A stretch of DNA of 64,000 nucleotides from Prolixibacteraceae bacterium (GTDB taxonomy: Bacteria; Bacteroidota; Bacteroidia; Bacteroidales; Prolixibacteraceae): positions 1,984,001 through 2,048,000 of the forward strand of contig CP082230.1 of NCBI GenBank assembly GCA_019856515.1, read 5' to 3'. Shown here in pieces: positions 3 through 15,418 of this stretch; position 1 is the stretch's first letter; each line of letters begins with the position of its first letter. The notes under the pieces were generated by a model, which saw only the letters and a program-made list of their open reading frames with translations, did not search any database and was not told the origin of the DNA. The translations under genes were made by a program, and so were the position numbers.

Positions 3-848
3 TCAGGACAAGTAATAGGTATAGATGGAAAAACTATAAAAGGTTCAGCTAATGCTAAGAAGAATGCCATTCATGTCGTATCAGCCTTTGCTTCAATGAA
101 TGGTTTATGTATAGGTCAAGTAACCACAGCGAAGAAAAGCAACGAAATAATTGCCATACCTGAGCTACTAGGTCTTATAACCATCAAGGGGATGATTGTT
201 ACTATAGATGCCATGGGATGTCAACTAGATATTGCTAAAAAGATCATCGAGAACCAAGGAGACTATATTCTGCAAGTAAAAGGCAATCAAGAGAAAACAA
301 AAGAAGAGATTGAGATTCAATTCAATACGGATCTTGTTTGCGACTCTAATATGGTCGAAGAATATGGTCATGGAAGGGCCGAAACACGTATTTGTGAGAT
401 AATAAAAGACATTGAAGATATTCCAGTGTTGTCTAAGTGGACTGAAATTAAAAGCCTAATTAGAATCACGACACAGGTATTTGAACCATCAATGCAGAAA
501 GAAAGAGCAGAAGTCCGTTATTATATTTCATCCTTAAATACTACAGCTGAGAAGTTTAATCAATTCATTCGTTCCCATTGGGCAATAGAAAACAATCTAC
601 ATTGGACATTGGATGTCACTTTTAATGAAGACAAACAGCAACGTAAGAAAAATCATGCTGCTGAGAATATGAATATGCTTTGTAAGATGGCTTTAAACAT
701 ATTAAAGTTGGATAAAGACAACAAAAAGTCAATGAAGTGGAAGAAAAATAGAGCTATTTGTATTGATGAATATAGAGAAAAACTAATGTCGCTTATACAC
801 TCTCCTGTAAAGCTTATACCCGAACGGGTATCGTCTTTGCAATTTTAG
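3..848 (+). CDS. ISAs1-family transposase, 5' end outside window
   Basis: The reading frame is open to the left edge of the window, so the first visible ATG at 96 is internal. Residues before it include the GIDGKTIKGS motif that carries the first catalytic Asp of the ISAs1 (H-repeat-associated) DDE transposases. The second Asp is in TIDAMGCQ and the Glu is in SHWAIENNLHW. The protein is complete at its C terminus. I could not identify the right terminal inverted repeat after the stop because the left end, needed for comparison, lies outside the window. It belongs to the same broad family as the element at 17,051-18,270 but is clearly a different element. Its catalytic residues look intact. 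Confidence 0.9.
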   Translation, partial: SGQVIGIDGKTIKGSANAKKNAIHVVSAFASMNGLCIGQVTTAKKSNEIIAIPELLGLITIKGMIVTIDAMGCQLDIAKKIIENQGDYILQVKGNQEKTKEEIEIQFNTDLVCDSNMVEEYGHGRAETRICEIIKDIEDIPVLSKWTEIKSLIRITTQVFEPSMQKERAEVRYYISSLNTTAEKFNQFIRSHWAIENNLHWTLDVTFNEDKQQRKKNHAAENMNMLCKMALNILKLDKDNKKSMKWKKNRAICIDEYREKLMSLIHSPVKLIPERVSSLQF

Positions 849-1679: not shown

Positions 1680-2384
1680 TCAAACCAACAATTTTTCCAA
1701 TCGATCTTTAGTTGTTCTCCAGTCAGGGTATTGTTTATCCAATAATTTATAAAACTCGGTACTATGGTTCAAGTGAGCCAGGTGACACAATTCGTGAATG
1801 ATGACATACTCAATGCATTTTTTAGGTGCTTTTATGAGTTCAAGATTGAGATGTATCTGACCTCTTTTATCACAACTCCCCCAACGTTTATCCATCCACC
1901 TGTACTTGAGCACAGGTTCCCCAGTGTAAAATTGTTTTGAAAATGGGATACATTCTTCAAACAGTTTCTGAAAATGAGAGTCTGCTTTGTTCTTGTACCA
2001 TTTTTTTAGAAGTTTCTCTATTTTATATTTGTCGGCTTTACTTTTTACAAAGACATTGATATTACCTGCCTGCAGTTTCACTTTTTCTTTATCGGACTCG
2101 AATATTTTCAGTCGATACTGCTTACCTAGATACAAATGAGTTTCTCCACTGATATACTTTCGGGCGGGTGTATATGGATGAAAAGTGAGAAAAAAATCTT
2201 GTTGTTTGATGATCCAGCCCGCTTTACTTATTATTTTCTCCTTTATCTTCTCAATGCTGGTATCCATAGGAGCTATAACTCTTACAGATTTGTCTGGATA
2301 AACTTTAATGCCAAGCGTCTTACGCTTTGCAAATTCCAAAGTGTATTCAATAACTGATGTTCCATATTTAATCTGCTCCTCCAT
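1680..2384 (-). CDS. YgjP-like (DUF45/M48-type) metallopeptidase
   Basis: The C-terminal half has the zinc-binding motif HELCHLAHLNHS followed by the downstream FYKLLDKQYPDW block typical of YgjP/SprT-like metallopeptidases, plus the YRWMDKRWGSC block that precedes it in this family. Length (about 235 residues) is normal. I start it at the ATG at 2384 (MEEQIKYG), which has AGGAATAGGAG just upstream; an in-frame ATG at 2417 would lengthen it by 11 residues. It overlaps the end of the preceding gene, so translation is probably coupled. Genes of this family are often found beside type I restriction subunits in Bacteroidota and other bacteria; the substrate is unknown. Its role here, perhaps processing or control of the restriction complex, is inference. 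Confidence 0.85.
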   Translation of the reverse strand: MEEQIKYGTSVIEYTLEFAKRKTLGIKVYPDKSVRVIAPMDTSIEKIKEKIISKAGWIIKQQDFFLTFHPYTPARKYISGETHLYLGKQYRLKIFESDKEKVKLQAGNINVFVKSKADKYKIEKLLKKWYKNKADSHFQKLFEECIPFSKQFYTGEPVLKYRWMDKRWGSCDKRGQIHLNLELIKAPKKCIEYVIIHELCHLAHLNHSTEFYKLLDKQYPDWRTTKDRLEKLLV

Positions 2385-2841
2385 CTCTCCTATTCCTTTT
2401 AAAGAATTCATCCCCATTAACTATGTAATAACTCACCTTGCCATATTCAATTTTGATTTCCTCTTTCCATAAATCACGAATAATTGAATTTTTATGATTG
2501 TACCAATTATTCATTCCCGCCTGCCAACTGAGCCATATTTTTTCATCAATCCTATTACGATCGTGCCAAAAATATTCTTCTGCACACAAATTAAAGAAAT
2601 CAATAATCACTGCCTTATCTATCTTTGCTAAATCATTTATTGAATTGGCTCCTTTATTCGACTCAACAATTTGACTCAATCGATTATTTAATTTATCATA
2701 TCTTTTATTAAACTCTGAGAAAAGCTCTTTCATCATTTTATCATCCTCTCGTTTTTTTGCTGATCGTGAAAACGATATCGTTGCAATTAAGCCAAAGGCT
2801 CCTAATATTAAGGATGGCAGAAGTGATATTAATTTATCCAT
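2368..2841 (-). CDS. Small N-terminally anchored membrane protein of the hsd locus
   Basis: 157 residues. The N terminus (LPSLILGAFGLIATISFSRS, about residues 8-27) is a single membrane-spanning segment. The rest is charged and helical, with a FFNLCAEEYFWHDR stretch. Proteins with a TM followed by a helical domain rich in Trp and Tyr are common as hypothetical genes in defence islands, but I cannot name a family. It starts 2 nt after the hsdR stop and overlaps the metallopeptidase gene, so it is co-transcribed with the restriction operon. Function unknown. Confidence 0.75.
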   Translation of the reverse strand: MDKLISLLPSLILGAFGLIATISFSRSAKKREDDKMMKELFSEFNKRYDKLNNRLSQIVESNKGANSINDLAKIDKAVIIDFFNLCAEEYFWHDRNRIDEKIWLSWQAGMNNWYNHKNSIIRDLWKEEIKIEYGKVSYYIVNGDEFFKRNRRDGGAD

Positions 2842-2843
2842 GA

Positions 2844-5800
2844 CTATTTGTATTTAAGGATTGCAATCTTCATACATTCTTCGATAAGATTGTCTATTTT
2901 ATCCCAGTTGGTATCTAAATCATATTTTTGGAATAGATCATAAATGGCATCACCCAATTCAATATTTATTTTTCCTGTCACATCATTGTTTCTGTGCCAA
3001 TCGACGATCTTTTTCTTATCTAAATAAATGTATTCTTTAACGGTATTATCTATTACCAAACTCACCTCAATATGAAAAGGTGTCTTGAGTAAATCTACAT
3101 CTTCGAAAATAGTTTTACTGAAGTTATAGAATGCCAAAGCCACTTCGTTATTAATCAATTGGGCAGGGGCATCATCAGAACGCCCTTTAAAGAACTTGTC
3201 TTCAAAGGCTTTGGCTTTATTTAAATAATCAGCTTCACTCATGCGTTTGTGATGATACTCTTCTATGGTATCTTTAATAAGATCTGCCAATTTTCGATAA
3301 TAAACAGGGTCTTCCTGCATTTTCACATTTATAGCCTTAATTGTACGACTGGCAATGTGATCGGCTTGTGCTGCTTTTCCCACCAATTTTCCAACCTCAG
3401 ATTCACGCTCGTCTTTATCGAAGATATTTACCAATTCGGTAATCTTCATGATCTCGCCTTCGGTAGAAATATGTTTATTAATGAGCTTCTGAATTTGAGG
3501 CTCAAACTCTCTATACGACATCTCGTCGTTGTAACGTCTTTTGACATCCACACGGAGTTTAAGGAAAAACTTAGCATCACTTTTAAAGTTCTCAATTTTT
3601 GCCGCAGCCGTATTCGTCATAAAATCAACAGAAGACAATGCTATTTTTAACATTCTTGAAAAAGTGCTTAACTTCTCATAGAATTTGTTTCTGATATCTT
3701 CCGGAGACAGAAATTCTTCATAAGCTGTGGCTTCAAAATTTTTGTCTTTTAAAGTTTTGAATATATCCCATAATTCCGAATGAGATTGCGGTAGCTTTTT
3801 TAACTCTTCATTCAAATTGGTCATCGAGCCTTCAAGGTCACCCTCTTCAAAACCTTCTAGTCCCGAATAGGTACTTAGTGCGCCATCTAAATTCTCCAGA
3901 TTTCCATAGTAGTCGATAATGTAACCATAGTCTTTACCCGGAAAAACACGATTAACTCTAGCAACAGCCTGTAAAAGGGTATGCTCTTTTAGTGATTTAC
4001 ACAAATAAAGAACTGTATTACAGGGCGCATCGAAGCCTGTGAGAAGTTTTGCAACCACAATGATAATTTCAGGATCCTCCCGATTTTTGAATTGATTGAT
4101 AATGCTTTTTTCATACTTCCTGATATCACCATACTTATCGATCATGGCTTTAAAATAAGCATCTTCACGTTCCTTTTCTTCGTTCACATTATAGAACCCA
4201 TCTGTGGTTCCTTTACGTTGATCAGACTGCGTCACAACAACTTCAGAAGTTACTTTCCCTATCTCATCCAAATAATGCTTGTAAAGCAAAGCGGTTTTAA
4301 TAGAAGGTGCCACCAGCTGTGCTTTTGGCTTATATGCATCGTTATTTGTTTGGAAGAAATCGGTATAATGCTCGCTAATATCCCATGACCTGGCATAAAC
4401 TATCTGATCTGCTTTATTGAGCTCATTTATGGTATTAAATTTCTTCTTTAAAGCAATCTTCCCGTAATCACTTAATGGTTCAGATACTTTATCGAAGAAT
4501 CGATTAATTGGCTCTGAATTTAGAGTAATCAGATTATGTCGCCCTTCGTACAAAAGAGGGACAACTGCACCATCTTCAACAGCATCGTTTACCGTATATG
4601 CCTTGCCTATGTAGCCACCAAATTTGTTAGCAGTACTCTTTTCCTTTTTCATTAAAGGCGTACCTGTAAAGGCTATAAAACACGCATTTTGAAATACTCG
4701 CTGCATACTCACATTAAAAGAGCCATATTGCGTTCTGTGCCCCTCATCGATCAGCACAAAGATGTCGGGAGACATAAATGGCTTTTTACATTGCTTAACA
4801 GCAGCTTCGAACTTATTGATGATGGTGGTAATGATAGCATCACCACTGTCATTTATTAAGTCTACTAGGTGAGATCCCGTTTTTGCTTGATTCACTTCTT
4901 TCTGACACTTCTTAAATGTATCTGAAATCTGATCATCCAAATCTATCCGGTCGGTTACCAATATGATTTTGGGGTTACTGATCTCACTGCTTGATGCAAT
5001 CATTTGAGCCAGCATTACCATAGTGAGTGATTTACCACTTCCTTGAGTGTGCCAAATAACTCCGCCCCTTCGCTTACCTGTATTGTCAAAATCGCTCACC
5101 CTTTTTAGCGTTTCGTTTACCGCAAAATATTGCTGGTAACGAGCCACTTTCTTAGTGCCATCATCGTACAAGGTGTAATTTCGAATAAAATCGACAATAC
5201 GCTTAGGTTGACACAAGCTATAGAGCAATTCGTCCTGTTTGGTAAGCGGTCTTTCCTCTTGCTCCAAAGTATCGAAATAATTTTTGACGTACTTAAATCG
5301 ATCAGAAAACAGATCTGTTTTATTATTTTCGGAGAGTGGCTTATTTTTAAGTTCTTTCAGAGAAGTCCAATAATCCTCTTCTGCTTTTTTGTTGGTGAAT
5401 TGTTCTTTCCATTTTGCCCAAAATTCTTTACTGGTACCTGTTGTGGCATAACTACCATCATTGGTGGCTAAACTCAATAATAAGTTTGAATACACATATA
5501 AAGAACGAATCCCGTCCTTACTAAAATTCCTTATATGTTGCTCAACAGCCAGGTCTGTTGGTGACTTGGTGCCACTTAATGATGGGCTTTTACATTCGAT
5601 AATAACGGTGGGGATGCCATTTATAAAGAGCAATACATCGGGTCGGTAATGATCGGTACGAGCAGTACGCAACACAGAGAACTCCTCGGTGACATGAAAG
5701 CTATTGTTTTCAGGATTTTTCCAGTCTATGTAATGCAGGGTATGACTTTTTTTATCACCACCGATGCTTTGCTCAAAAGCTTTCCCCAATGTAATCTGGT

Positions 5801-6095
5801 CGTATAATGCAGCATTTGCATTGATGAAACCATTTTGAATTGGAAGATCTTTGATTGCCAAAATTGCAGCGCTAATATTAGCATCAGAAAATTCATACTC
5901 TTTTCCTTTACGGTAAATACTATTAATTTTCTTTAACTGAGTTCGCAAAACATTCTCAAACAATACCGCAGAGGCTTTACCTCCCCGCCACTTAACCGCC
6001 TGTGTAGGCGTTACATATTGATACCCCATATTTATGAGCAGTTGAATTGCTGGTAATTGAGAAATGTGATCTTCTAAAAATGATGGTGTACCCAT
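2844..6095 (-). CDS. hsdR: Type I restriction enzyme R subunit
   Basis: 1083 residues, normal for HsdR. The N-terminal nuclease domain shows the PD-(D/E)xK core with Asp153 (RPDVLLF) and Glu167-x-Lys169 (IIECKSP). The SF2 translocase follows: Walker A HTQGSGKSLTMV (Lys355), a DEAH-like LIDEGHRTQYG motif near residue 452, FTGTPLM motif III, and VAKLLTGFDAP plus ARVNRVFPGK in the second RecA domain. The C terminus is a helical domain that would dock on the methyltransferase core. It would translocate and cut unmodified DNA as an HsdR2M2S1 complex. It starts 6 nt after the hsdS stop. No inactivating change is visible. Confidence 0.96.
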   Translation of the reverse strand: MGTPSFLEDHISQLPAIQLLINMGYQYVTPTQAVKWRGGKASAVLFENVLRTQLKKINSIYRKGKEYEFSDANISAAILAIKDLPIQNGFINANAALYDQITLGKAFEQSIGGDKKSHTLHYIDWKNPENNSFHVTEEFSVLRTARTDHYRPDVLLFINGIPTVIIECKSPSLSGTKSPTDLAVEQHIRNFSKDGIRSLYVYSNLLLSLATNDGSYATTGTSKEFWAKWKEQFTNKKAEEDYWTSLKELKNKPLSENNKTDLFSDRFKYVKNYFDTLEQEERPLTKQDELLYSLCQPKRIVDFIRNYTLYDDGTKKVARYQQYFAVNETLKRVSDFDNTGKRRGGVIWHTQGSGKSLTMVMLAQMIASSSEISNPKIILVTDRIDLDDQISDTFKKCQKEVNQAKTGSHLVDLINDSGDAIITTIINKFEAAVKQCKKPFMSPDIFVLIDEGHRTQYGSFNVSMQRVFQNACFIAFTGTPLMKKEKSTANKFGGYIGKAYTVNDAVEDGAVVPLLYEGRHNLITLNSEPINRFFDKVSEPLSDYGKIALKKKFNTINELNKADQIVYARSWDISEHYTDFFQTNNDAYKPKAQLVAPSIKTALLYKHYLDEIGKVTSEVVVTQSDQRKGTTDGFYNVNEEKEREDAYFKAMIDKYGDIRKYEKSIINQFKNREDPEIIIVVAKLLTGFDAPCNTVLYLCKSLKEHTLLQAVARVNRVFPGKDYGYIIDYYGNLENLDGALSTYSGLEGFEEGDLEGSMTNLNEELKKLPQSHSELWDIFKTLKDKNFEATAYEEFLSPEDIRNKFYEKLSTFSRMLKIALSSVDFMTNTAAAKIENFKSDAKFFLKLRVDVKRRYNDEMSYREFEPQIQKLINKHISTEGEIMKITELVNIFDKDERESEVGKLVGKAAQADHIASRTIKAINVKMQEDPVYYRKLADLIKDTIEEYHHKRMSEADYLNKAKAFEDKFFKGRSDDAPAQLINNEVALAFYNFSKTIFEDVDLLKTPFHIEVSLVIDNTVKEYIYLDKKKIVDWHRNNDVTGKINIELGDAIYDLFQKYDLDTNWDKIDNLIEECMKIAILKYK

Positions 6096-6101
6096 ATATT
6101 A

Positions 6102-7367
6102 TTAATTTACCCTTTTCTGACCCGTTAATAATTGTTGCATCAGACCTTTTTTCTGTGTCTGTAATTGAGATAAGTATGATTCATGTATTTGTATCTCCTC
6201 ATCAGCAGCAGCTATGACTTTAGCTATAGCTTGTTGTTCCATATATGGAGGAATCTTTACTTCTAATTTTGGAAAGTCTGTTTTACTCATCACCCTATTT
6301 CGACCCGCTCCACCTGGTGAAATCAAATTAAGCAAATATTTAAAACGTGGTTGCAAAACAAAGTATCTAAAAAAATGAGGGAATGCTTTTCCTTCATTAA
6401 ATGTAAATGTTGGGAAACGATGTGAAACCAATCCACCTTCATCCTGTTTATCAACGATAGCGATGGCTTGCTCCCAAGCAAAAGTAATATTGACAATTAA
6501 ATCATACTCTTTTACTTCATACAATGTATCCATTGCTATAGAATCAGGATCAAAATTTTCTTTATGAAAAACACCTTTACCATGACTTCTCAAACCTAGA
6601 GCTAGATAATTAAAGCTCGGTTTATCAACTGGTCTTAAAGTAGCTGAAATATAACTACCTAGAGGACAACTTTCCCATTCCCCACTAAAACCAGGCAAAC
6701 GTGACTTACCAATTAGTAATTGCTGCATTAATCCTTTTTTCCGAAGCTTTAGTTGCCCAATAAGGTTTTGAATATGCTCAATGGCTTTGTCCCATACAGA
6801 AAGGATTTCTGCTATTTTTTGTTGTTCAGCGAGAGGGGGTAGAGGGATTTTAATACCAGTAAAGCTTTCTTTTGAGATATTTTTCATACTATTACTTGTT
6901 CCAGTTGCCCTGTTCTTAATCTGAAATCTGTAATATTGGGAATTCAATAGAAAATTAAACCACCTAGCATTGACAATTTTATTATTTAACTCTGTTAGCC
7001 ACAAACGATCCGGGATAAACAGATCCTGTTCTGTTTTAGCCACATATGCACATGCACCTACCAAATCTGGGGTATTCATCCGGCTAATAAGTAACGAATC
7101 TTTTTTAGGATTTAATCTTGCTCTTATTAACTCTTGAACTGAAATAATTGCTTTGTTTTGGTCAGGAATAAATATTCCATTATAAACAGAACTAGTTTTA
7201 AGAATACCTTTTTCATTATTCAATTTTGTTCTATCTGTAGAATTAACACTTACACCAGATTTTATTGAAGCTACTATATTTGAGATTCGTGTTATTTCCC
7301 ACACTTCAGGAATCCAACCTATCTTAGTTTTTTTATAGCCTGTTTTATTTTCGTTATATATTGTCAT
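6102..7367 (-). CDS. hsdS: Type I restriction-modification specificity subunit
   Basis: 421 residues with the usual duplicated layout of two target-recognition domains. The conserved helical spacers are visible as PLPPLAEQQKIAEILS...KKGLMQQLL at about residues 175-220 and PPYMEQQAIAKVI...KKGLMQQLLTG at the C terminus. The two spacers are similar to each other, as expected. HsdS directs HsdM and HsdR to a bipartite DNA site; the site cannot be read from sequence. It lies 19 nt downstream of the nucleotidyltransferase gene and 6 nt upstream of hsdR, and is unusually far from hsdM (about 5.5 kb) because other defence genes intervene. Confidence 0.94.
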   Translation of the reverse strand: MTIYNENKTGYKKTKIGWIPEVWEITRISNIVASIKSGVSVNSTDRTKLNNEKGILKTSSVYNGIFIPDQNKAIISVQELIRARLNPKKDSLLISRMNTPDLVGACAYVAKTEQDLFIPDRLWLTELNNKIVNARWFNFLLNSQYYRFQIKNRATGTSNSMKNISKESFTGIKIPLPPLAEQQKIAEILSVWDKAIEHIQNLIGQLKLRKKGLMQQLLIGKSRLPGFSGEWESCPLGSYISATLRPVDKPSFNYLALGLRSHGKGVFHKENFDPDSIAMDTLYEVKEYDLIVNITFAWEQAIAIVDKQDEGGLVSHRFPTFTFNEGKAFPHFFRYFVLQPRFKYLLNLISPGGAGRNRVMSKTDFPKLEVKIPPYMEQQAIAKVIAAADEEIQIHESYLSQLQTQKKGLMQQLLTGQKRVN

Positions 7368-7386: not shown

Positions 7387-8148
7387 TTATAGTTCAAAGA
7401 ACTCTTTAAATTGCCCAATCACTTTATCTGGAGAAATTGTAATCCCCATACTCTTAAACATTTCCTTGCCAGGTGGTTCTTTAGCCATAATTTCAAGACA
7501 GCTTTTCAAATTCTCATTGATTACATCTGGAATTTCTATTTTTTCACCAGGAACAAGAAGTAGTGTCAGACGTAGCATATCCGCCTTGTGTTTTTTAATT
7601 TGCTTGGAACAATCTATCTCCCCTTCAAGTGACCTTTGGGTGTAATCAAGTAAAGCCTGAGCCTTTAGGCAAATAAGGGCAATGGTATTGGCAATATTTA
7701 CCTCATCCTTCACTTCGCTATTATCAAGAGTGAACTTGTAATATTTCTCATCCATTAAAATGGCAGACAGGCTGGAAAGTTCAGCATCGGTTGGTATGGG
7801 AGTAAGATGAGATTCTTCATCCAAATCCAATAAGTCAGGATTCTTAGCAAACAGTTCTATCTGATAAGGAAACTCCTTATTTTCAGGCTTTATGAACCTG
7901 TAATAATTATGGTCACCCTCCCCTTTTTCGCGCTGCTCATAATTCCCTTTCTTTATAAATTCCCAAAACTGAACTACAAATTCTTTACTTAAAGCCTCGA
8001 CAATTAAGATGATATCGATATCCTTAGTTACCCTAGGTGAGAATCCTGCCTCCTTAATAAGAATATCGCAAGCCGTCCCCCCAATGATGATATAGTTATC
8101 CGTAAAATATTTAAAAAACTCTTTAAATATATCTATTCCTCTTACCAT
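7387..8148 (-). CDS. AbiEii-like nucleotidyltransferase (candidate toxin)
   Basis: 253 residues. The N terminus has the minimal nucleotidyltransferase signature: Gly23-Gly24 in IIIGGTACD, followed by the metal-binding Asp43-x-Asp45 in VTKDIDIIL. This arrangement is typical of AbiEii/AbiGii-type nucleotidyltransferases, which act as toxins in type IV toxin-antitoxin or abortive-infection pairs. The C-terminal part is helical and unassigned. Its start overlaps the end of the upstream gene by 7 nt, as in toxin-antitoxin pairs, and hsdS follows after 19 nt. The toxin role is inferred from family and gene order; it could instead be a housekeeping-like nucleotidyltransferase. Confidence 0.75.
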   Translation of the reverse strand: MVRGIDIFKEFFKYFTDNYIIIGGTACDILIKEAGFSPRVTKDIDIILIVEALSKEFVVQFWEFIKKGNYEQREKGEGDHNYYRFIKPENKEFPYQIELFAKNPDLLDLDEESHLTPIPTDAELSSLSAILMDEKYYKFTLDNSEVKDEVNIANTIALICLKAQALLDYTQRSLEGEIDCSKQIKKHKADMLRLTLLLVPGEKIEIPDVINENLKSCLEIMAKEPPGKEMFKSMGITISPDKVIGQFKEFFEL

Positions 8149-9149
8149 AAGTATTTCTCTTCAATTTGTTCTAATGCCATTTCAATACGTTCGTCACTAT
8201 CCCCCATAAAACTGATAAACAACGAAAGTGGATCGACAATCTTAGGATACCTGTTAAAAATCTCAGCAAGTGTTAAGGGGTTGTATTTCCAAACCTCCAA
8301 ACAATATCGCCCTTCGTATTTATTCTCATTTACCAATTTATTACTCTTTTGCAAAGCATAATAAGCATTCTTCTCAATGGCAAAAAACAACTGTCTTGAA
8401 GGATTCATATCTGAATATTCAGTAAGAGCAGACTCATTGCTCCTCAAAAGTTGTGTGTCATGTGGAATCTCATCAACAAAAACTCTCTTAAGAACAGGAT
8501 CACGGTAGAATCCATTCTCTTTCAGTTTTTTCCATAAATCAATCCTATCATATACAAAACTAATTCTCTTCTCTTTAAGCCCCTGAACTTCGATCAAGTC
8601 AAGTTGTTTAAGATTTTCAACAGCTTTGGTTATCGCCATTGACGAGTAAACCAGTTTCTCAGCAATTTCTTTAAAAGAAAGATTTTTTATCGCCTCTGCT
8701 TCGTCTCTATTTAAGATATGATATAAAACAATCAACTGAGCTGAAGGTGTAAGCGTCTCTTTGTTTTGTTTTTTATAAGGAGCAAAAGACTCTCGAAGAT
8801 CCATCATTAAGTCAGGAATAAAGAGTTGTTTGCCAGGTACAATGAAATTGATTCTTTTATCGATTAATCGTAAGCGATTATATGAAGCTAATTGAGCTAA
8901 TACGAGTACAACAGGCATACTGAACGCCTCTCTCAAAAGCTCAATATGTTTATCTGTTTGTGAAATCTTAAAATCATCAACATTCTTATTTTCAAGCAAT
9001 ATAACATGCTGATTCAACAAGGTCGTTTCATATATATTATAAGCATGATATATATAAAGCGGCATAACCTTCAACTGATTCTTAGGGAGCCTTTCTATAC
9101 CTATTGGCTCTCCCAATATTTCCTTCAAATACGTCTTCAGATATTCCAT
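8142..9149 (-). CDS. Winged-helix protein paired with the nucleotidyltransferase (candidate antitoxin/regulator)
   Basis: 335 residues. The middle (about residues 135-200) looks like a MarR-type winged helix: SAQLIVLYHILN...LSFKEIAEKLVYSSMAITKAVENLKQLDLIEVQG. The N-terminal part (KNQLKVMPLYIYHAY...NYNRLRLIDKRINFIVPGKQL) is unassigned, and the C terminus is helical. AbiEi antitoxins also carry an N-terminal winged helix, but here the helix is central, so this is not a standard AbiEi. The 7-nt overlap with the downstream nucleotidyltransferase implies coupled translation. An antitoxin that represses its own promoter is the most economical reading, but I infer it from context only. Confidence 0.65.
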   Translation of the reverse strand: MEYLKTYLKEILGEPIGIERLPKNQLKVMPLYIYHAYNIYETTLLNQHVILLENKNVDDFKISQTDKHIELLREAFSMPVVLVLAQLASYNRLRLIDKRINFIVPGKQLFIPDLMMDLRESFAPYKKQNKETLTPSAQLIVLYHILNRDEAEAIKNLSFKEIAEKLVYSSMAITKAVENLKQLDLIEVQGLKEKRISFVYDRIDLWKKLKENGFYRDPVLKRVFVDEIPHDTQLLRSNESALTEYSDMNPSRQLFFAIEKNAYYALQKSNKLVNENKYEGRYCLEVWKYNPLTLAEIFNRYPKIVDPLSLFISFMGDSDERIEMALEQIEEKYLW

Positions 9150-9171
9150 ATCAGATAATTAAACTTGAAAC

Positions 9172-9202
9172 TGCACAATAAACCCACTCAGTTTATTATG
9201 CA
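9172..9202. repeat. Hairpin downstream of the metallophosphoesterase gene
   Basis: TGCACAATAAAC and GTTTATTATGCA form a 12-base stem with one mismatch around a 7-base loop. It lies between the metallophosphoesterase stop and the next start. There is no U-tract, so it is not a standard terminator. Confidence 0.55.
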
Positions 9203-9211
9203 ATTATAGGT

Positions 9212-9982
9212 TTATTGTTTTAAACTTGCAACATTAATTGTACTTGTTTTAAACAAATGATGCTCATTATTTCTAACATATCCCAATTGGTTAGTAAGAA
9301 GCAGTGTATCTGCAATGGTAAAATCGTTTATATTAGAATGATGATGCCCAAAAATCCAATAATTAATATTGGACGACTCGATGAGTTCAAAGAGTTCGGA
9401 TGCGAAAGCTTCATTAAGCATATCACCCTTATACTGTTCAGGGTAATTCAGAAAAGTAGGCACATGATGAGTAGCTACTACTGTTAATTTTGTTGCAGAA
9501 TGATTAAGTGCGCTTTTAATAAAATCAATCGATTCTCTATACATCTCATTATAATCAAGAGGTAGAAATGATCTATTCTGATTCTTTATGACAACAAAAT
9601 CAGAAAGTCTATTCTGTATAAAATATTGATTTTGTTCACTGATATTAGACCATAGAGTAGAGAAAATGAATGTAATATCATCATGCTGTACACAGTGGTT
9701 GTTTACCAATGATACATTGTAAAAAATCTTTTCATTTATAACACCCGTACGACTGGATATATCAGAATAGTAATATTCATGATTTCCAGGAATCCAGTAG
9801 CTCTGTTTAAACTTACTGGAAAGGTCCTCGAAAAACCATAAATATTTATCCAAGACAACAAAGGGAACGATATCGCCAGAGAGAATCAAGATGTCGCCTA
9901 TAGGTTCTATAGGATTCGCCCTAAGAAACTTTTCATTCTCTGGAAACTCCAAATGCAGGTCAGAACAATATTGAATCATCAT
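9212..9982 (-). CDS. Calcineurin-like metallophosphoesterase within the defence run
   Basis: 256 residues with the full metal-binding set of the calcineurin-like fold: CSDLHLEF (Asp8, His10), ILSGDIV (Asp37), PGNHEYYY (Asn67, His68), ATHHVPT and FGHHHSN. No signal peptide or membrane segment, so it is cytoplasmic. The fold covers phosphodiesterases, nucleotidases and protein phosphatases, and the substrate cannot be told from sequence. It sits 75 nt downstream of the CBASS E2 gene and 62 nt upstream of the winged-helix gene, with an inverted repeat in each gap. Cyclic-nucleotide turnover or an independent nuclease role are both possible; I favour neither strongly. Confidence 0.88.
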   Translation of the reverse strand: MMIQYCSDLHLEFPENEKFLRANPIEPIGDILILSGDIVPFVVLDKYLWFFEDLSSKFKQSYWIPGNHEYYYSDISSRTGVINEKIFYNVSLVNNHCVQHDDITFIFSTLWSNISEQNQYFIQNRLSDFVVIKNQNRSFLPLDYNEMYRESIDFIKSALNHSATKLTVVATHHVPTFLNYPEQYKGDMLNEAFASELFELIESSNINYWIFGHHHSNINDFTIADTLLLTNQLGYVRNNEHHLFKTSTINVASLKQ

Positions 9983-10007
9983 TATTATATCAAATTATCT
10001 AATAAGA

Positions 10008-10038
10008 TTCAGTATGTGCAATAATTGCACATACTGAA
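10008..10038. repeat. Perfect 13-bp-stem hairpin between CBASS and metallophosphoesterase
   Basis: TTCAGTATGTGCA and its exact complement flank the loop ATAAT. It lies 19 nt after the E2 stop in the direction of transcription. Only a weak T-rich tail follows, so it may attenuate rather than end transcription, or stabilise the upstream mRNA. Confidence 0.7.
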
Positions 10039-10057
10039 TAATTATTACTTACTCATT

Positions 10058-10480
10058 TTATTTTTTATCTTCACTTGAATGTTCAATGCCTCCACCATTC
10101 CAAACACCTGTTACCGCCCATATTTCATAATGCAGTAACCATTCGCAAGCCCATGGTATTATAGTGTTTGCTAAATACATAGATGAAGACCATTCTCTAG
10201 CCAATGGGTAGTATAAGCAAAGTTTCTGCTTTGGTGTGCTATAAACATGTTTAAGTACTATTTGCCCTTCTGCAAGTTTTAAAGGTTTTGGTTCAAGCAC
10301 AAAGACTTCAGGAGCTCTTCCCATCTTATAATGGAGACGTATTTTATAGGTTCCACTTAATGGAGAAGGAGTTACATCATGCGTCCATGTTATCTCCTTT
10401 TCTCTAATTCTTTTAATTATGGAATTAGGGAAATAGGATTTCAGGGCACCCTCTTGGGCTGCCAATGACACACTACTCAT
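10058..10480 (-). CDS. Stand-alone bacterial E2-like conjugating protein of type II-short CBASS
   Basis: 140 residues. The pattern KLCLYYP (Cys88), then EWSSSMYLANTIIPWACEWL, HYEIWAVTGVW and NGGGIEH, is that of the prokaryotic E2-like proteins of CBASS, in which the Cys before the YP is catalytic. In full type II CBASS this module is the N-terminal part of the E1-E2 fusion Cap2; here there is no E1 and no JAB protease (Cap3), which matches the short form of type II. Known members engage the C terminus of their CD-NTase to raise its activity. The start codon overlaps the CD-NTase gene by 8 nt, so the two are translated together. Confidence 0.85.
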   Translation of the reverse strand: MSSVSLAAQEGALKSYFPNSIIKRIREKEITWTHDVTPSPLSGTYKIRLHYKMGRAPEVFVLEPKPLKLAEGQIVLKHVYSTPKQKLCLYYPLAREWSSSMYLANTIIPWACEWLLHYEIWAVTGVWNGGGIEHSSEDKK

Positions 10481-11705
10481 CTATGCCAAAGTTTTGATGT
10501 TGAGCAATAGTTGTCCTTCCAATAAGACCAACTGTCCCAGTAGTAGCCGCCATTTTCATTTTACCTGACTCTCTTAAAAGTCTTTGATTAACTCCATAGT
10601 TATTAAACGCATCATTAAAATCTTTTTCACCAAATGAATCCCTAAGTGACTCCACAACGGCAGGTAGTCCCTTATTCGTATTTGACATTGCAGCATGAAC
10701 ATCTTCACGAACTTTAGCCATCCACTTGTAGAAATTATCCTGCTTTCTAGGGGTATCAGGCCATTTATCAGCAAAGTTTTCTTCATCATTCACAGGATTA
10801 GCGATCCATTTAATTGATCTACCATGTTCTTCAGAATATTTCTCTTCTATCTCATTAGGCATTTGATCAATAATATTCACTAATGCTTGAAGAATATCTG
10901 TTTCTTTTCTGTAAGCTCTGGCTGCCAATGTTGTAATACTAATAGAGATAGGTTTATCATCGTCCCCATTAAATATCATATCTCTATGGCGTTTAAGAAT
11001 TTGAACAACTCTTTGCAAGGGATGTTTCTTTTCATGGTATTTAGGCAAAGGTTGAACAGACTCACTCATCATAACAGCCTTTGTAAAACCAATAGTAGCC
11101 TGTTGCTCAAACCATATTCCATATCCAAAAGGATTACTTTTCAACCAGTCTTCTGGATGATTTGAGGAATCATAACAGTCCATTTCTCTATCTGTAATTC
11201 TTATAGCTAAAGAATCTGGATTCTCCATTTGTCTAGCTGAGAATGCTTTTGCAAGTATGGTTTTATAATCAGTACTCACAATTGCAGGCAAGATATCCAT
11301 GTGAAATTTTGCAGAATCGGCATACTGTAGCGTCCAACACCTTCTTCCATCTGGAGTCTCAAGAAGATTCTTTATGGTGCCATGATCTTTTAGGCGGTCA
11401 CCAACCACCATCTTAAGATCTTTTTGCGTCCAATCCAGATTTTTCCCTTCAAGACGACACACAAGATCAACATCAAGTTCATCTTTTTGAAGAGGCTTCA
11501 CCATGGTTCCAAGCATGAAAGAACCTTGCGGAATAATCTCCGGATTATATCTGTGAAGTGGGGAATTTACGGACGCTAAATGGTTAGCAACAAATTCGTA
11601 GCTTTTTAAAGCTTGTTCATGTTGCTCTTTAGTAATATCAAGTGTTTTACCAAACTCTTCGAGGATATCACTAAATTGGGTTATTTGTTCAGTGGTTAGT
11701 TGCAT
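10473..11705 (-). CDS. CD-NTase (cGAS-like cyclic nucleotide synthase) of CBASS
   Basis: 410 residues. The nucleotidyltransferase core is clear: Gly61-Ser62 in PQGSFMLGT, the metal-binding Asp78-x-Asp80 in ELDVDLV, and a third Asp137 in FHMDILPA. It would make a cyclic di- or oligonucleotide on phage infection that the SAVED effector encoded 1 nt upstream would sense. Pairing with an HNH-SAVED effector recalls CdnG-Cap5 and CdnD-Cap5 systems, and in CdnG-Cap5 the signal is 3',2'-cGAMP; the clade here is not proven. The C terminus ends NFGIDE, relevant to E2 targeting. No inactivating change is seen. Confidence 0.9.
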   Translation of the reverse strand: MQLTTEQITQFSDILEEFGKTLDITKEQHEQALKSYEFVANHLASVNSPLHRYNPEIIPQGSFMLGTMVKPLQKDELDVDLVCRLEGKNLDWTQKDLKMVVGDRLKDHGTIKNLLETPDGRRCWTLQYADSAKFHMDILPAIVSTDYKTILAKAFSARQMENPDSLAIRITDREMDCYDSSNHPEDWLKSNPFGYGIWFEQQATIGFTKAVMMSESVQPLPKYHEKKHPLQRVVQILKRHRDMIFNGDDDKPISISITTLAARAYRKETDILQALVNIIDQMPNEIEEKYSEEHGRSIKWIANPVNDEENFADKWPDTPRKQDNFYKWMAKVREDVHAAMSNTNKGLPAVVESLRDSFGEKDFNDAFNNYGVNQRLLRESGKMKMAATTGTVGLIGRTTIAQHQNFGIDE

Positions 11706-11706
11706 A

Positions 11707-12852
11707 TTATTTAATTTTCAGGGTTTTAATAAATTTATTAAGCGTTCTATTTTGGTCATATACGAGCATACTCATATCCGCCTTTGGCATCCATGCACGT
11801 CCAAGTTCAATAGCTGTAGAAACAGGCATTGCAGGAAATATATTTAAAACAGCATCTTGACCATAAATCGCTTTTATTTTATCAAATGCTTTCCTGATAA
11901 ATTCTCTAAAAAGCTTGAGTTGATGCCTACTTTGAAGAAAGTCGTTATAAGGTTCTTCAATTTTTATAGACCAAATGTCAACATCAATACCCATTACATC
12001 TGTTAATCGATCATCAGTTATTGTTGCGCTTAGTTCAATTTTTAATGCAACTACATTGGCACGTTTTTCTGGGATGACCAATTCATATTCAATTGATTTA
12101 TCATCATTTTGCCATGCCCATGTTGATGGTTCTCTGTGTAATTGGTATACTTCAGCAGAATAAATATCATTTAATAAGGTCCCCAGTTTTATCAACAAAG
12201 GTTGAGGTGCAAGAGCAAAAATCGAGTAATGTTGTATTCCATCATTCTCTTTAATGTATTCAACCTGTTTTTTAAACAAGGCACATAAGTTTTGCTCTTG
12301 AATGTTCCAATATTCAGGCATTGAATCTTCAATGACAGTATTCTTCATACCAAGCTCTATGGCATTGGAACTTAAAGGATAATACTGTGGTATAACAGCT
12401 TGTACAGCGCTATCGTATCTTAGCGGAGAATCGTGTTTACCAACCTTTGCACCATACATGATAACATGAGTCATCTTGTTAGGTTGAATACCTGTCAACA
12501 GCTCAATTCTAGCCTCATGGTCTTTCTTCATTTGGATAAGAGTCTCAGCAGTATATTCTTTAACAGGCATAGCGTCGATTAAACGATGGCATTCATCACA
12601 CATAAGCATCAGATTGTTATAATCTGTTTCAAGCTGTGGTGATAAAATCTTATCATATCGAGGACCTTCAGGAGAAAACGCATATATATGAGCTATATAT
12701 GATTTATTCATAAGATTTCTCGTGATAGAATGAGACCATAATGCTTTATTACAACCCTTGAATTGACACCTGCCTCCAGAGGCTAGCCAAAGTCGTGCTT
12801 TTGTATTTGCAGGAATAGGCGGTCTCGGTTCTTTATCTTTTTTCTTTCCCAT
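11707..12852 (-). CDS. cap5: CBASS effector Cap5: HNH nuclease with SAVED sensor domain
   Basis: 381 residues. The N-terminal HNH domain has paired cysteines Cys29/Cys34 (GRCQFKGC), the catalytic His55 in AHIYAFSPEGPRYD, and the closing NLMLMCDECHRLID block (Cys85, Cys88, His89). From about residue 145 to the end lies a SAVED-type ligand-binding domain (FALAPQPLLIKLG, then VDIWSIK and LNIFPAMPVSTAIELGRAWMP near the C terminus). Known Cap5 proteins degrade DNA after binding the cyclic nucleotide and oligomerising, killing the infected cell. It starts 2 nt after hsdM and ends 1 nt before the CD-NTase gene, so CBASS expression is physically tied to the methyltransferase gene. Confidence 0.9.
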   Translation of the reverse strand: MGKKKDKEPRPPIPANTKARLWLASGGRCQFKGCNKALWSHSITRNLMNKSYIAHIYAFSPEGPRYDKILSPQLETDYNNLMLMCDECHRLIDAMPVKEYTAETLIQMKKDHEARIELLTGIQPNKMTHVIMYGAKVGKHDSPLRYDSAVQAVIPQYYPLSSNAIELGMKNTVIEDSMPEYWNIQEQNLCALFKKQVEYIKENDGIQHYSIFALAPQPLLIKLGTLLNDIYSAEVYQLHREPSTWAWQNDDKSIEYELVIPEKRANVVALKIELSATITDDRLTDVMGIDVDIWSIKIEEPYNDFLQSRHQLKLFREFIRKAFDKIKAIYGQDAVLNIFPAMPVSTAIELGRAWMPKADMSMLVYDQNRTLNKFIKTLKIK

Positions 12853-12854
12853 CT

Positions 12855-14342
12855 CTAATATCCCAATTCTTTTAAATACCCAGCCATTTGTTTCTCAACT
12901 TCAGTCAATTCTGTCTTTAAATTGACTATTTCATTTTGAGTTGCAGCTATATCTACTGGTTCTTCCTCTTCAAAAGTATCAACATAACGAGGGATATTTA
13001 GATTGTAGTCATTATCCTCTATTTCCTTACGAGTAGCCACATAGCTGTATTTATCAATACTCTCCCAGTTTTTATATGTGGTATAGATCTTTTCAATATC
13101 GACGACTCTTAATCTACTTTGGTTTTTGCCATTATCAAACTCGCGGCTTGCATCAATGAAGAGCACATCAGTATTCTCCCCTTTATTCTTATCGAAGATT
13201 AATATACTAGCTGGAATACCTGTCCCAAAAAACAAGTTAGCAGGTAAACCTACTACCGCTTTTAATACATTTTCCTTGACTAAAGCCTGACGGATTTTCC
13301 CTTCGGAGCTTCCACGAAACAAGACACCATGAGGCAATACTACGCCCGCTCTACCGTGTTCATTCAGGGTTTCTATCATGTGGGTAATAAAGGCATAATC
13401 CCCTTTACTTTTTGGCGGAACTCCTCTATGGAAACGGAGGTAACGATCGGCACTGGCGTCATCGGCTCCCCATTTGTCCAGAGAAAAAGGAGGATTTGCA
13501 ACGACAATATCGAACTTCATAAGAGAATCATTCTCGACCAACTGTGGGCTATTGATTGTGTCGCCCCATTCAATTCTAGCGTTGTCCATTTCATGCAAGA
13601 ACATGTTCATTCGAGCCAAAGCCCAAGTGCTTCCATTTACTTCTTGCCCATTTAAAGAAAGATTTTTACTACAAATCTCCTTGGCCACTTTTAATAGTAA
13701 AGAACCGGAACCACAAGTCGGGTCACATACCCTATTTCCATCTTTTGGCTCAATTAACTTTGCCAATAAGCTAGAAACCATAGAAGGTGTATAAAATTCG
13801 CCTGCTTTTTTTCCTGCATCCGAAGCAAAATTTGCAATCAAGAATTCATAGGCATCTCCAATCACATCATTATCTTCCAAATTCGAAGGTCTTAGGTTCA
13901 GGTCAGAAAAGTCAGTCAAGAGATTTTTTAATCGTCTATTCCTATCTTTCGTTTGTCCAAGATTGGCTTCTGAATTGTAGTCAATATTACGAAACACCTT
14001 TTCTAACTTGGAACGGTTGGCATCTTCGAGGTTTTCCAAAGCAATATTGATGAGCTCACCTAAATTGTCTTCGTTACGCTCCTCATAAATAAAGTCGAAA
14101 GAGCTTTCTTCAGGCACTTTGAATCTTTCGTGTTTTAAAGCTCGATCTACACGCTCAGCATCGCTATTGTACTTATGCATGTATTCTTCTTTCTTTTCTT
14201 TTTGCACATCAGTGATGTACTTTATAAAGAGCATGGTTAAGATATAATCTTTGTATTGAGCTGCATCAATGGTTCCACGGAAAGTATCACATGCTTTCCA
14301 AACCTTTTGATTAATTATATCTTGAGTTAGTTTATTGTTCAT
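12855..14342 (-). CDS. hsdM: Type I modification methyltransferase subunit
   Basis: 495 residues. After the N-terminal helical HsdM domain (IINQKVWKACDTFRG) comes the N6-adenine methyltransferase core: SAM motif DPTCGSGSLLL at 207-217 and catalytic NPPF at 283-286 (VVANPPFSLDKWG). The PHGVLFRGSSEGKIR and VGLPANLFFGTGIPASILIF blocks further support HsdM. With HsdS it would methylate the host sites. It is the first large gene of the leftward run. The next gene is not hsdS but cap5, 2 nt away. Nothing suggests inactivation. Confidence 0.96.
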   Translation of the reverse strand: MNNKLTQDIINQKVWKACDTFRGTIDAAQYKDYILTMLFIKYITDVQKEKKEEYMHKYNSDAERVDRALKHERFKVPEESSFDFIYEERNEDNLGELINIALENLEDANRSKLEKVFRNIDYNSEANLGQTKDRNRRLKNLLTDFSDLNLRPSNLEDNDVIGDAYEFLIANFASDAGKKAGEFYTPSMVSSLLAKLIEPKDGNRVCDPTCGSGSLLLKVAKEICSKNLSLNGQEVNGSTWALARMNMFLHEMDNARIEWGDTINSPQLVENDSLMKFDIVVANPPFSLDKWGADDASADRYLRFHRGVPPKSKGDYAFITHMIETLNEHGRAGVVLPHGVLFRGSSEGKIRQALVKENVLKAVVGLPANLFFGTGIPASILIFDKNKGENTDVLFIDASREFDNGKNQSRLRVVDIEKIYTTYKNWESIDKYSYVATRKEIEDNDYNLNIPRYVDTFEEEEPVDIAATQNEIVNLKTELTEVEKQMAGYLKELGY

Positions 14343-14409: not shown

Positions 14410-14634
14410 TTATCCTCTTGGTGGAAAATTATCATTCCCATGGGAATCCTTTCTTTGGATTTGTCCATTTTTGCCGTGGATAACCAATTCAGAACTTTCT
14501 TTACGTGAAAGATCTCTGCTGTAATTTTCAGCGTCTTTTTTTGTGTCAAAATGTTTAGAAGCTCTTGATGCTCCACCTTTTTTAGAATCCCAACCACCAT
14601 CGTGATTTGGTACTACGTGTCTAGTATTAGCCAT
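14410..14634 (-). CDS. DUF2188 small protein
   Basis: 74 residues when started at MANTRHVVPN, the usual beginning of this family; an upstream ATG at 14661 is in frame but adds nine atypical residues. The pattern HVVPNHDGGWDSKKGGASRASKHFDTKKDAE and the C-terminal ELVIHGKNGQIQRKDSHGND are the two halves of DUF2188. The function is unknown; members are short, basic and often encoded near mobile or defence genes. It lies 67 nt upstream of hsdM and may be the first gene of the operon. Confidence 0.85.
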   Translation of the reverse strand: MANTRHVVPNHDGGWDSKKGGASRASKHFDTKKDAENYSRDLSRKESSELVIHGKNGQIQRKDSHGNDNFPPRG

Positions 14635-14695
14635 AATTTTATCAATTTTGCAATCGTCCAATATTGTTACGGATTAGGACGAGTTAGCCGAGTCA

Positions 14696-14801: not shown

Positions 14802-14832
14802 AGTCTTAAAAAGCGACTAACTTTTTAAGACT
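14802..14832 (+). terminator. 12-bp-stem hairpin with U-tract at the end of the half hsdS gene
   Basis: AGTCTTAAAAAG pairs with CTTTTTAAGACT around a 7-base loop, followed by TTTTT on the + strand. The left-reading half hsdS gene ends inside it. The U-tract favours rightward termination, although no rightward gene precedes it. Confidence 0.55.
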
Positions 14833-15418
14833 TTTTTACTGTCTTTGTCACACTTATTTGATTAGTAATCAACTTATTGATCAAACCTCGCTTGAGGTCT
14901 TTTTTATTCTCTAATAATTTTGCTGTTAATTCGACATCTCTATCGAGTAGATTACCCAATTTAATAATCCGCTTCTGTTCATCGATTGATGGAATTATCA
15001 ATTTTAAGTGCTCTAATTCCTTTTTGGGAATCGAGGTAATTGTTGCACCAGCACCAATAGATTTAAGCTCAAACTGCATTTTTTGAGAATTAAGATAGTA
15101 GGCTAAATATTCACCTAAAATAAATTCCACTTTTGCGCGGAGGATATAAAAAAGTGAAGATGGCACAGCCTTACCTATTGTATCGTTATATGCCCAAGCA
15201 AAAATTCGTTGCCCTTTCCCTGCTAATATCACATCGTTGTTTTGCAAAAGGAATCTATCTGTTTTTTCAGATGAGTCAATATAACTTTTCGTAAATATTG
15301 TTGGCTGGTAAAAATCATCGAAATGACCAGCAAGTAGATATTTAATACGACCTTCATCTTGTCCTTTTTCATAAGGACCAAATTGAATTTCTGCTATGTC
15401 GTCAAGTTTTACAATCAT
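14825..15418 (-). CDS. Solitary half-length HsdS-like protein
   Basis: 197 residues forming one type I specificity module: a target-recognition domain (IAEIQFGPYEKG..., LLAGHF, NNDVILAGKGQRIFAWAYND) ending in the conserved spacer IPSIDEQKRIIKLGNLLD...LKRGLINKLI. A normal HsdS has two such modules. No second half, hsdM or hsdR partner is adjacent, and the sequence is not obviously a duplicate of the full hsdS at 6102-7367. Half-length S proteins can dimerise into a functional subunit or act as recombination donors. It may be an alternative specificity for the HsdM nearby, or a decaying leftover. Start and stop are intact. Confidence 0.8.
   Translation of the reverse strand: MIVKLDDIAEIQFGPYEKGQDEGRIKYLLAGHFDDFYQPTIFTKSYIDSSEKTDRFLLQNNDVILAGKGQRIFAWAYNDTIGKAVPSSLFYILRAKVEFILGEYLAYYLNSQKMQFELKSIGAGATITSIPKKELEHLKLIIPSIDEQKRIIKLGNLLDRDVELTAKLLENKKDLKRGLINKLITNQISVTKTVKKS

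What the first reader, a model, noticed from the sequence alone, without database searches (positions are those of the whole stretch)
7387..14342. CBASS and a candidate toxin-antitoxin pair embedded inside a type I restriction-modification operon
hsdM is separated from hsdS and hsdR by six other genes read in the same direction. The first three form a complete CBASS (Cap5, CD-NTase, E2) packed with 2-nt and 1-nt gaps and an 8-nt overlap right after hsdM. Seen in sequence: order, strand, spacing and motifs. Inference: the CBASS shares the hsdM transcript, so restriction and abortive infection are co-expressed layers, with CBASS as back-up if restriction fails.
Basis: partly seen in the sequence, partly recalled or inferred. 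Interest (0 to 1): 0.82.

Follow-up and report, generated by a model that had tools for sequence, protein, structure and literature searches.

The report
CBASS loaded into a restriction operon
A complete phage-triggered suicide system (CBASS) sits inside a DNA-restriction operon, and relatives show that this kind of operon is a reusable carrier with two loading slots into which different genes, CBASS among them, have been swapped repeatedly, sometimes with CBASS cut in two by a restriction gene.

Summary
On the minus strand hsdM is followed 2 nt later by cap5, CD-NTase and E2 (type II-short CBASS), then a metallophosphoesterase, a winged-helix/nucleotidyltransferase pair, hsdS and hsdR. Comparison of 72 loci (window included) of one hsdM clade shows a type I R-M chassis, half-S - hsdM - [slot 1] - hsdS - [slot 2] - hsdR - YgjP peptidase, with exchangeable cargo (CBASS, RhuM/Bro-N, Fic, kinase, MPE, TA-like pair). 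CBASS genes begin 1-2 nt behind hsdM in 9 of 60 readable loci, needing 9 changes on the hsdM tree, and in 0 of 34 other type I loci searched for the same families. In 5 of the 9 CBASS is divided by hsdS, an effector lying in slot 2. Pairs with hsdM at least 90% identical but different hsdS and cargo indicate recent exchange. A shared transcript is plausible for the CBASS, less so for all six genes: the TA-like pair has its own promoter-like motif in 9 of 11 loci. Back-up if restriction fails remains inference. Embedding in type I operons was known (PrrC, DarTG2, TgvAB); recurrent, sometimes split, CBASS is a new variant.

The parts
14825..15418 (-). half-S: 197-aa HsdS-like protein with one target-recognition domain, first gene of the chassis
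   Evidence: PF01420 48 bits; present upstream of hsdM in 66 of 72 chassis loci; a -7-like TATCTTTG begins 39 nt before its ATG
14410..14661 (-). DUF2188 small protein between half-S and hsdM
   Evidence: PF09954 83 bits; same cluster in slot 2 of 6 other loci
12855..14342 (-). hsdM, type I DNA adenine methyltransferase, chassis gene
   Evidence: PF02384 360 bits, TIGR00497 312 bits over cut-off
11707..12852 (-). cap5: HNH-SAVED nuclease, CBASS effector (slot 1)
   Evidence: SAVED 162 bits; PADLOC effector 519 bits; solved relative 7rwk E 1e-97
10473..11705 (-). CD-NTase (DncV/CdnG-like cyclase), QGSF...DVD motif read in the sequence
   Evidence: PADLOC cyclase 418 bits; solved relatives 9woo E 1e-57, SmCdnG 8hsb_A E 1e-33
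10058..10480 (-). E2-like enzyme of type II-short CBASS, KLCLYYP putative catalytic-Cys motif
   Evidence: PADLOC E2 173 bits; only solved relative found is 8hsb_B, the E2 in the SmCdnG entry, E 1e-17
10007..10039 (-). 33-nt inverted repeat (15-bp stem) at the CBASS/MPE boundary; possible terminator or operator
   Evidence: region z -4.1 against 200 shuffles, 0 as good; only copy in the genome up to 3 mismatches
9212..9982 (-). calcineurin-like metallophosphoesterase (MPE), cargo found alone or before the winged-helix/NTase pair
   Evidence: PF00149 57 bits; in 13 loci including the window
9150..9211 (-). promoter/operator-like gap: TATAATTG (one mismatch to TAnnTTTG) plus inverted repeat before the winged-helix gene
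   Evidence: hairpin z -4.75; TAnnTTTG in 9 of 11 loci, window not among them; inverted repeat z at most -2.2 in 8 of 11, window among them
8142..9149 (-). 335-aa MarR-like winged-helix protein, putative antitoxin/autoregulator
   Evidence: MarR_2 E 3e-5, below Pfam's cut-off; 1023 relatives
7387..8148 (-). 253-aa nucleotidyltransferase, AbiEii/MenT-like, putative toxin
6102..7367 (-). hsdS, two-domain specificity subunit
   Evidence: PF01420, two stretches
2844..6095 (-). hsdR, type I restriction subunit
   Evidence: TIGR00348 451 bits over cut-off
1680..2417 (-). YgjP-like (M48/SprT-type) metallopeptidase, last chassis gene
   Evidence: PF01863 194 bits; within 3 genes after hsdR in 52 of 56 loci

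Best explanation
This is a two-slot type I R-M carrier operon loaded with a complete type II-short CBASS. Shown: the backbone half-S - hsdM - slot 1 - hsdS - slot 2 - hsdR - YgjP is conserved, while slot contents and hsdS differ between close relatives; CBASS genes are found on scattered branches of this backbone, directly behind hsdM. Inferred: recombination in the conserved hsdM and hsdR flanks, favoured by selection for new HsdS specificities, brings in whatever lies between; in slot 1 the CBASS has no promoter of its own and is made from the hsd transcript (possibly by translational re-initiation at the hsdM stop). The cell then makes two layers together: R-M cuts unmodified DNA, and if infection proceeds E2 primes the CD-NTase, its cyclic nucleotide activates Cap5 and the cell destroys its DNA. 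The winged-helix/NTase pair is a separate, self-regulated TA-like cassette.
For: Backbone: half-S in 66 of 72, YgjP in 52 of 56; slot 1 occupied in 51 of 60 against 13 of 34 control type I loci from the same genomes (Fisher p 5e-6). CBASS behind hsdM in 9 of 60 against 0 of 34 (p 0.014; 7 of 58, p 0.034, without the window and L014, which was found through cap5). Genome level, own genome excluded: this CD-NTase in 6 of 64 genomes with this hsdM and in 5 of 722 without (p 8e-5), and the 6 lie inside the operon. Independence: 9 changes on the hsdM tree for 9 CBASS loci, starred branches force 8 (quick tree); embedded CD-NTases are not one clade (AU p 0.007). Exchange: in the 6 pairs with hsdM at least 90% identical in DNA, hsdR is 82-94% identical over its length, but hsdS aligns over only 13-28% and slot contents differ at least in part. 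Transcript: gaps of 1-2 nt, no own promoter seen.
Against: No transcript data. Absence of a promoter rests on simple motif scans; the -7 motif was also absent before 5 of 5 free CBASS, so it is a weak detector. Control loci were screened only for CBASS families related to those seen in the chassis. The phylum sample alone is not significant (p 0.078), and those genome searches scored at most 3-4 candidates per genome, so some genomes may be miscounted. The CBASS label is no more clustered on the hsdM tree than shuffled labels, which shows turnover but says nothing about function. Layered function is assumed from the families. The two hairpins could insulate parts of the insert.
Confidence: 0.65

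Rival explanations
1. Pure hitch-hiking: hsdS is under strong diversifying selection, so the hsdM-hsdR interval recombines often and any gene landing there survives and spreads. The CBASS position has no regulatory or functional meaning.
For: hsdS and cargo turn over together in close pairs; cargo is very varied, 65 of 246 cargo genes are singletons; some cargo families have no known defence role that I know of, e.g. DUF3800, DUF3010, HAD; the winged-helix/NTase pair keeps its own promoter-like motif.
Against: Enrichment of this CD-NTase clade in hsdM genomes and inside the operon; 0 of 34 controls, 13 of which do have cargo; constant 1-2 nt junction in the same orientation in 9 of 9 CBASS loci, although MPE cargo shows the same junction.
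Confidence: 0.25
2. Restriction-gated CBASS: the R-M complex itself senses phage (for instance an anti-restriction protein binding HsdM/HsdS/HsdR) and licenses the CD-NTase, as EcoprrI holds PrrC silent until phage Stp inhibits it.
For: PrrC precedent in a type IC operon (passage of PMC12707154); in 5 of 9 loci the CBASS is divided around hsdS, so the two systems are easily moved only together; repeated pairing with one hsdM clade.
Against: The same CD-NTase clade stands, with its partners, as a free operon elsewhere (L053, L054, L127-L129); other CBASS types and many unrelated cargoes use the same slots; no interaction interface was sought.
Confidence: 0.1
3. Assembly or annotation artefact, or decaying remnants.
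For: Half-S is short and could look like debris.
Against: The nine genes from hsdM to hsdR are open frames of ordinary length in a one-contig genome; the arrangement recurs in independent genomes; half-S is found in 66 of 72 loci.
Confidence: 0.01

Closest known systems
RRDM island of enteropathogenic E. coli (RptR, HsdM, HsdS, DarTG2, HsdR, M48 peptidase), PMC12255303 (passages seen, some from the abstract)
   Same: Type I operon with a toxin-based defence between backbone genes and a metallopeptidase gene downstream; the paper calls the hsdS-hsdR site a potential recombination hotspot; hsdM transcript rises more than 15-fold within 1 h of infection.
   Different: Cargo is DarTG2 between hsdS and hsdR; here CBASS is right behind hsdM, the first gene is a half-S, and cargo exchange is seen across many genera. 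RptR was not searched for.
TgvAB inside the VPI-2 type I system of Vibrio cholerae, PMC11411939 (passages seen)
   Same: Complementary defence genes embedded in a type I R-M cluster.
   Different: Type IV restriction, not cyclic-nucleotide signalling.
PrrC in EcoprrI (passage of the review PMC12707154)
   Same: Abortive effector encoded within a type I operon, acting when restriction is blocked.
   Different: PrrC is a single protein gated by the R-M complex; no such gating is shown here.
Type II-short CBASS with SmCdnG and E2 (PDB 8hsb)
   Same: CD-NTase plus a lone E2.
   Different: Here the operon with Cap5 is inside, or interleaved with, R-M genes.
Payne et al. 2024 preprint on defences genetically embedded in immune systems (10.1101/2024.01.29.577857; not read, seen only as cited in the papers)
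   Same: General principle of embedding.
   Different: Whether it lists CBASS in type I operons could not be checked.

Membership tests
Type I restriction-modification | HsdM, HsdS and HsdR encoded together | tested here: met
   TIGR00497 and TIGR00348 over cut-off, PF01420 over cut-off
Type I restriction-modification | Sequence-specific methylation and cleavage | not testable with these tools
   needs methylome or restriction assay
CBASS, type II-short | CD-NTase of the DncV-like group | tested here: met
   PADLOC 418 bits; PF21654 37 bits over cut-off 24.9; NCBIfam CBASS models hit only below their cut-offs
CBASS, type II-short | Lone E2 with Cys, no E1 or Cap3/JAB gene in the locus | tested here: met
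   E2 173 bits, Cys aligned with 8hsb_B; no E1 or JAB family among the 10 proteins scanned
CBASS, type II-short | Cyclic-nucleotide-gated effector gene | tested here: met
   HNH-SAVED Cap5, 7rwk E 1e-97; gating itself not tested
CBASS, type II-short | Nucleotide product, E2-dependent conjugation of the CD-NTase C terminus, anti-phage activity | not testable with these tools
   a short C-terminal tail with an aromatic residue and Gly occurs in the 404-413-aa CD-NTases and not in the 495-514-aa ones; suggestive only
Embedded defence (one defence inside another's operon) | Complete second system between genes of the host system, same strand | tested here: met
   recurrence
RRDM-type chassis | Order hsdM, hsdS, cargo, hsdR, metallopeptidase | tested here: met
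   YgjP after hsdR in 52 of 56 loci; order. In the window slot 2 itself is empty
RRDM-type chassis | RptR repressor as first gene | not tested
   no RptR model or sequence was searched; first gene here is half-S
AbiE/MenAT-type toxin-antitoxin (7387-9149) | MenT/AbiEii-like nucleotidyltransferase fold | tested here: met
AbiE/MenAT-type toxin-antitoxin (7387-9149) | Overlapping antitoxin gene upstream with autoregulatory operator | tested here: inconclusive
   7-nt overlap; -7-like motif in 9 of 11 and inverted repeat in 8 of 11 loci; partner is MarR-like, binding not tested
PrrC/EcoprrI-type gated effector | R-M complex holds the effector inactive | not testable with these tools
   needs co-purification and knock-outs

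The most novel reading that the evidence does not exclude
The R-M operon and CBASS have fused into one interleaved machine: HsdM/HsdS/HsdR not only share the transcript but gate the cyclase, so that phage inhibition of restriction is the signal that fires CBASS; splitting of the CBASS around hsdS keeps sensor, specificity and effector from being separated.
Probability: 0.1. Interest if true: 0.88.

Novelty: new variant of a known kind. Interest (0 to 1): 0.6.

Why it matters
It turns a single odd operon into a rule that can be tested: one type I R-M clade acts as a carrier whose two slots sample the defence gene pool. That gives a concrete route by which abortive systems may spread and change partners, a rich place to look for unknown defences (the slots also hold uncharacterised families), and natural replicates for the open question whether co-encoded restriction and abortive infection act together. 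The split CBASS loci are natural experiments in which effector and cyclase genes are separated by hsdS.

Tried and rejected
Rejected: CBASS and hsdM as one co-inherited unit. The hsdM tree needs 9 changes for 9 CBASS loci, no fewer than shuffled labels (mean 8.6), and the CD-NTase tree mixes embedded and free rows. Rejected: a cap5 promoter at -126 inside hsdM, because a motif there is as frequent in loci without CBASS. Rejected: E2 fusion in the long CD-NTases; the extra part of L099 is AGS_C (L082, which looks alike, was not scanned). Rejected: the palindrome at 10007-10039 as a repeated mobile end; it is the only copy in the genome. Weakened on checking: a claim that all winged-helix/NTase loci have both motif and inverted repeat; one search finds both in 7 of 11 (repeat absent by folding in L046, where the contig has Ns, L051 and L085; motif absent in the window and L085).

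Led nowhere: Rfam (0 hits); sigma-70 promoter scan, 58 hits against 59 in shuffles; a literature search for PADLOC 'phage defence candidates' listed padlock-probe papers, and the PADLOC 2022 paper holds no 'PDC' (passages); scans of the NTase against Pfam, PADLOC and NCBIfam (0 hits). Foldseek alone ranked viral poly(A) polymerases first for the NTase; VIA-align put MenT toxins among the top rows, and the toxin reading rests on that together. That CBASS in type I operons was not seen in print rests only on the listings and passages, in an open-licence library without preprints.

Rows dropped before counting: of 80 loci annotated, six distant comparators (L055-L060, about 41% hsdM identity), L116 (54.6%) and L114 (no hsdM frame called) were left out, giving 72. 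Four contig-edge loci fetched later (L132-L135) were never counted. 12 of the 72 show no hsdS downstream (mostly contig ends) and are outside the 60. Five of 39 control loci had no hsdS downstream and are outside the 34. ORFs were called by my own longest-frame script, so some starts, overlaps and small genes are wrong (L050's start is one case). Order and phylum samples share a few genomes; the pooled Fisher test ignores that. Cargo clusters are named from one to three scanned members each.
Full report
WHAT IS THERE. The genome is one contig of 5.19 Mb. Families are clear for hsdM, hsdS, hsdR, cap5, CD-NTase and E2. The E2 has one relative among solved structures, the E2 of the SmCdnG entry 8hsb; the CD-NTase is related to SmCdnG and to 9woo; Cap5 is closest to 7rwk. 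With no E1 or Cap3 gene beside it this is a type II-short CBASS. [quoted passage not shown] The 253-aa gene is a MenT/AbiEii-like nucleotidyltransferase and overlaps a MarR-like winged-helix gene by 7 nt, so 'candidate toxin-antitoxin pair' is a fair label.

THE CHASSIS. I searched the window's hsdM in 140 genomes of its family, 393 of its order and 395 of its phylum and read up to 20 kb around the close matches (60 of the 64 order and phylum matches, the other four later). Of 80 loci annotated, 72 belong to the hsdM clade (at least 55% identity). They share a backbone: a single-domain HsdS-like gene (half-S, median 188 aa, in 66 of 72), hsdM, slot 1, hsdS, slot 2, hsdR, and a YgjP-like peptidase (52 of 56 loci with hsdR). 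Slot 1 is occupied in 51 of 60 loci where hsdS is seen downstream; slot 2 in 52 of 56 complete loci, the window being one of the four empty ones. The commonest cargo clusters are RhuM/Bro-N (28 genes), Fic (13), MPE (11), AlbA_2/HATPase (11), CD-NTase (9), winged helix (9), NTase (8), E2 (7), cap5 (6), protein kinase (6), each named from one to three scanned members; 65 of 246 cargo genes are singletons. Several match PADLOC candidate families PDC-S04, S05, S06 and S13.

BEYOND THE PHYLUM. Of 729 plasmid records matching hsdM I opened nine near the top of the list, eight with annotation (not a random sample). All eight have a SprT-type peptidase gene after hsdR; six have an annotated S-subunit gene directly before hsdM, a seventh a hypothetical protein of that size, and the Klebsiella record none. 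Slot 1 holds RhuM in four and nothing in four; slot 2 holds Shedu, Abi, HAD, DUF3800 or other genes. They come from Pseudomonadota and Campylobacterota.

CBASS IN THE CHASSIS. CBASS genes start slot 1 in 9 of 60 loci: cap5-CD-NTase-E2 in the window, L063 and L096; cap5-CD-NTase with AGS_C in L099; CD-NTase-E2 in L014, L050 and L069; CD-NTase with no E2 frame called in L073 and L082. The first CBASS gene begins 1 or 2 nt after hsdM in all nine, taking for L050 the ATG homologous to the others. In five loci the system is split by hsdS: in L014 and L082 cap5 lies in slot 2, and in L050, L069 and L073 slot 2 holds a patatin-type CBASS phospholipase with a second CD-NTase (L073's contig ends before hsdR; L069's pair is placed by its clusters). 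A free relative, L128, has CD-NTase, E2, patatin and a second CD-NTase in one row, so the latter loci look like that operon divided by hsdS. A tenth locus, L100, carries patatin, CD-NTase and E2 in slot 2. On a Methylomonas plasmid (L124) slot 2 holds another type, a cyclase (675 bits) with a 2TM effector (289 bits), followed by AbiD. Different CBASS types have thus entered the same kind of chassis.

NOT CHANCE, NOT ONE INHERITED EVENT. Excluding the window's genome, the CD-NTase (E at most 1e-60) occurs in 6 of 64 sampled genomes with this hsdM and in 5 of 722 without (p 8e-5; order sample alone p 0.0002, phylum sample alone p 0.078). The six are inside the operon. As a control I took 39 other hsdM-type loci from the 36 chassis genomes that I searched for them, choosing the matches with E at most 1.1e-57 and frames up to 600 aa, plus none beyond those: 34 readable, 13 with cargo between hsdM and hsdS, none with CBASS of the families searched (9 of 60 versus 0 of 34, p 0.014; 7 of 58, p 0.034, without the two ascertained loci). 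So embedding is common in type I operons of these genomes, while CBASS loading was seen only in this clade. On the hsdM tree (73 rows, quick method) the nine CBASS loci need nine changes, eight forced by well supported branches. The CD-NTase tree (17 rows) rejects a single embedded clade (AU p 0.007). The data do not tell gains from losses, but cassettes clearly come and go.

HOW CARGO MOVES. In the six pairs with hsdM at least 90% identical in DNA, hsdR stays 82-94% identical along its length while hsdS can be aligned over only 13-28%. Slot 2 content differs in all six (some clusters shared in three pairs) and slot 1 in five (one of the five shares a cluster; L107 and L109 have the same one) (three of the pairs come from three loci). 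L069 and L075 differ in this way in having or lacking the split CBASS. This fits recombination in the two conserved flanks, with selection for new HsdS specificity as the likely driver (inference).

EXPRESSION. The CBASS has no recognisable promoter; the -7 motif 126 nt upstream is hsdM coding sequence, and a motif there is shared with loci lacking CBASS. In EcoKI hsdM and hsdS overlap by 1 nt and are translationally coupled (start of the abstract of PMC3510504 in the listing), so cargo placed in this junction may inherit a coupled position (inference). Downstream, a 15-bp hairpin lies between E2 and MPE. Before the winged-helix gene a TAnnTTTG motif occurs in 9 of 11 loci and an inverted repeat in 8 of 11, both in 7, in slot 1, in slot 2, without MPE, and once outside the operon (L063). 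The window itself has the repeat and a one-mismatch motif. The TA-like pair is therefore likely to be expressed on its own. In the E. coli island of similar gene order hsdM rises more than 15-fold within an hour of infection (PMC12255303), so a phage-inducible carrier is possible, but nothing here tests it. The motif TAnnTTTG as a Bacteroidota promoter element is recalled, not taken from a call.

VERDICT. Observation confirmed; interpretation partly right. The operon is an instance of a widespread carrier, not a unique fusion. What looks new, as far as the listings and passages I saw in an open-licence library go, is recurrent loading of CBASS behind hsdM and its division around hsdS.

Noticed in passing
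window 14825-15418 and 66 of 72 related loci: A conserved single-domain HsdS-like gene opens the operon in addition to the full hsdS; it may give the methyltransferase a second specificity or regulate the operon.
   Followed up: partly
window 9150-9211; L042, L043, L046, L047, L051, L063, L083, L088, L097: Promoter-like TAnnTTTG motif, mostly with an inverted repeat, before the winged-helix gene in different slots: likely operator of a mobile TA-like cassette.
   Followed up: partly
L050, L069, L073 slot 2: A patatin phospholipase and a second CD-NTase beside a slot-1 CD-NTase (with E2 in L050 and L069): two cyclases in a single operon; the free form is L128.
   Followed up: partly
L050:9643-9999, L082:8352-8669, L096:10064-10366: A small protein family with a weak GIY-YIG hit, found among the clustered cargo only in slot 2 of three CBASS-carrying loci.
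   Followed up: no
L124:4057-6985 (Methylomonas plasmid CP157006.1): CD-NTase, 2TM effector and AbiD between hsdS and hsdR of the same kind of chassis in a gammaproteobacterium.
   Followed up: partly
window 14410-14661; slot 2 of L050, L076, L087, L109, L117, L118: DUF2188 small protein recurs in these operons, role unknown.
   Followed up: no
window 96-848, 17133-18251, 20983-22431: DDE transposase genes on both sides of the operon suggest a mobile neighbourhood.
   Followed up: no
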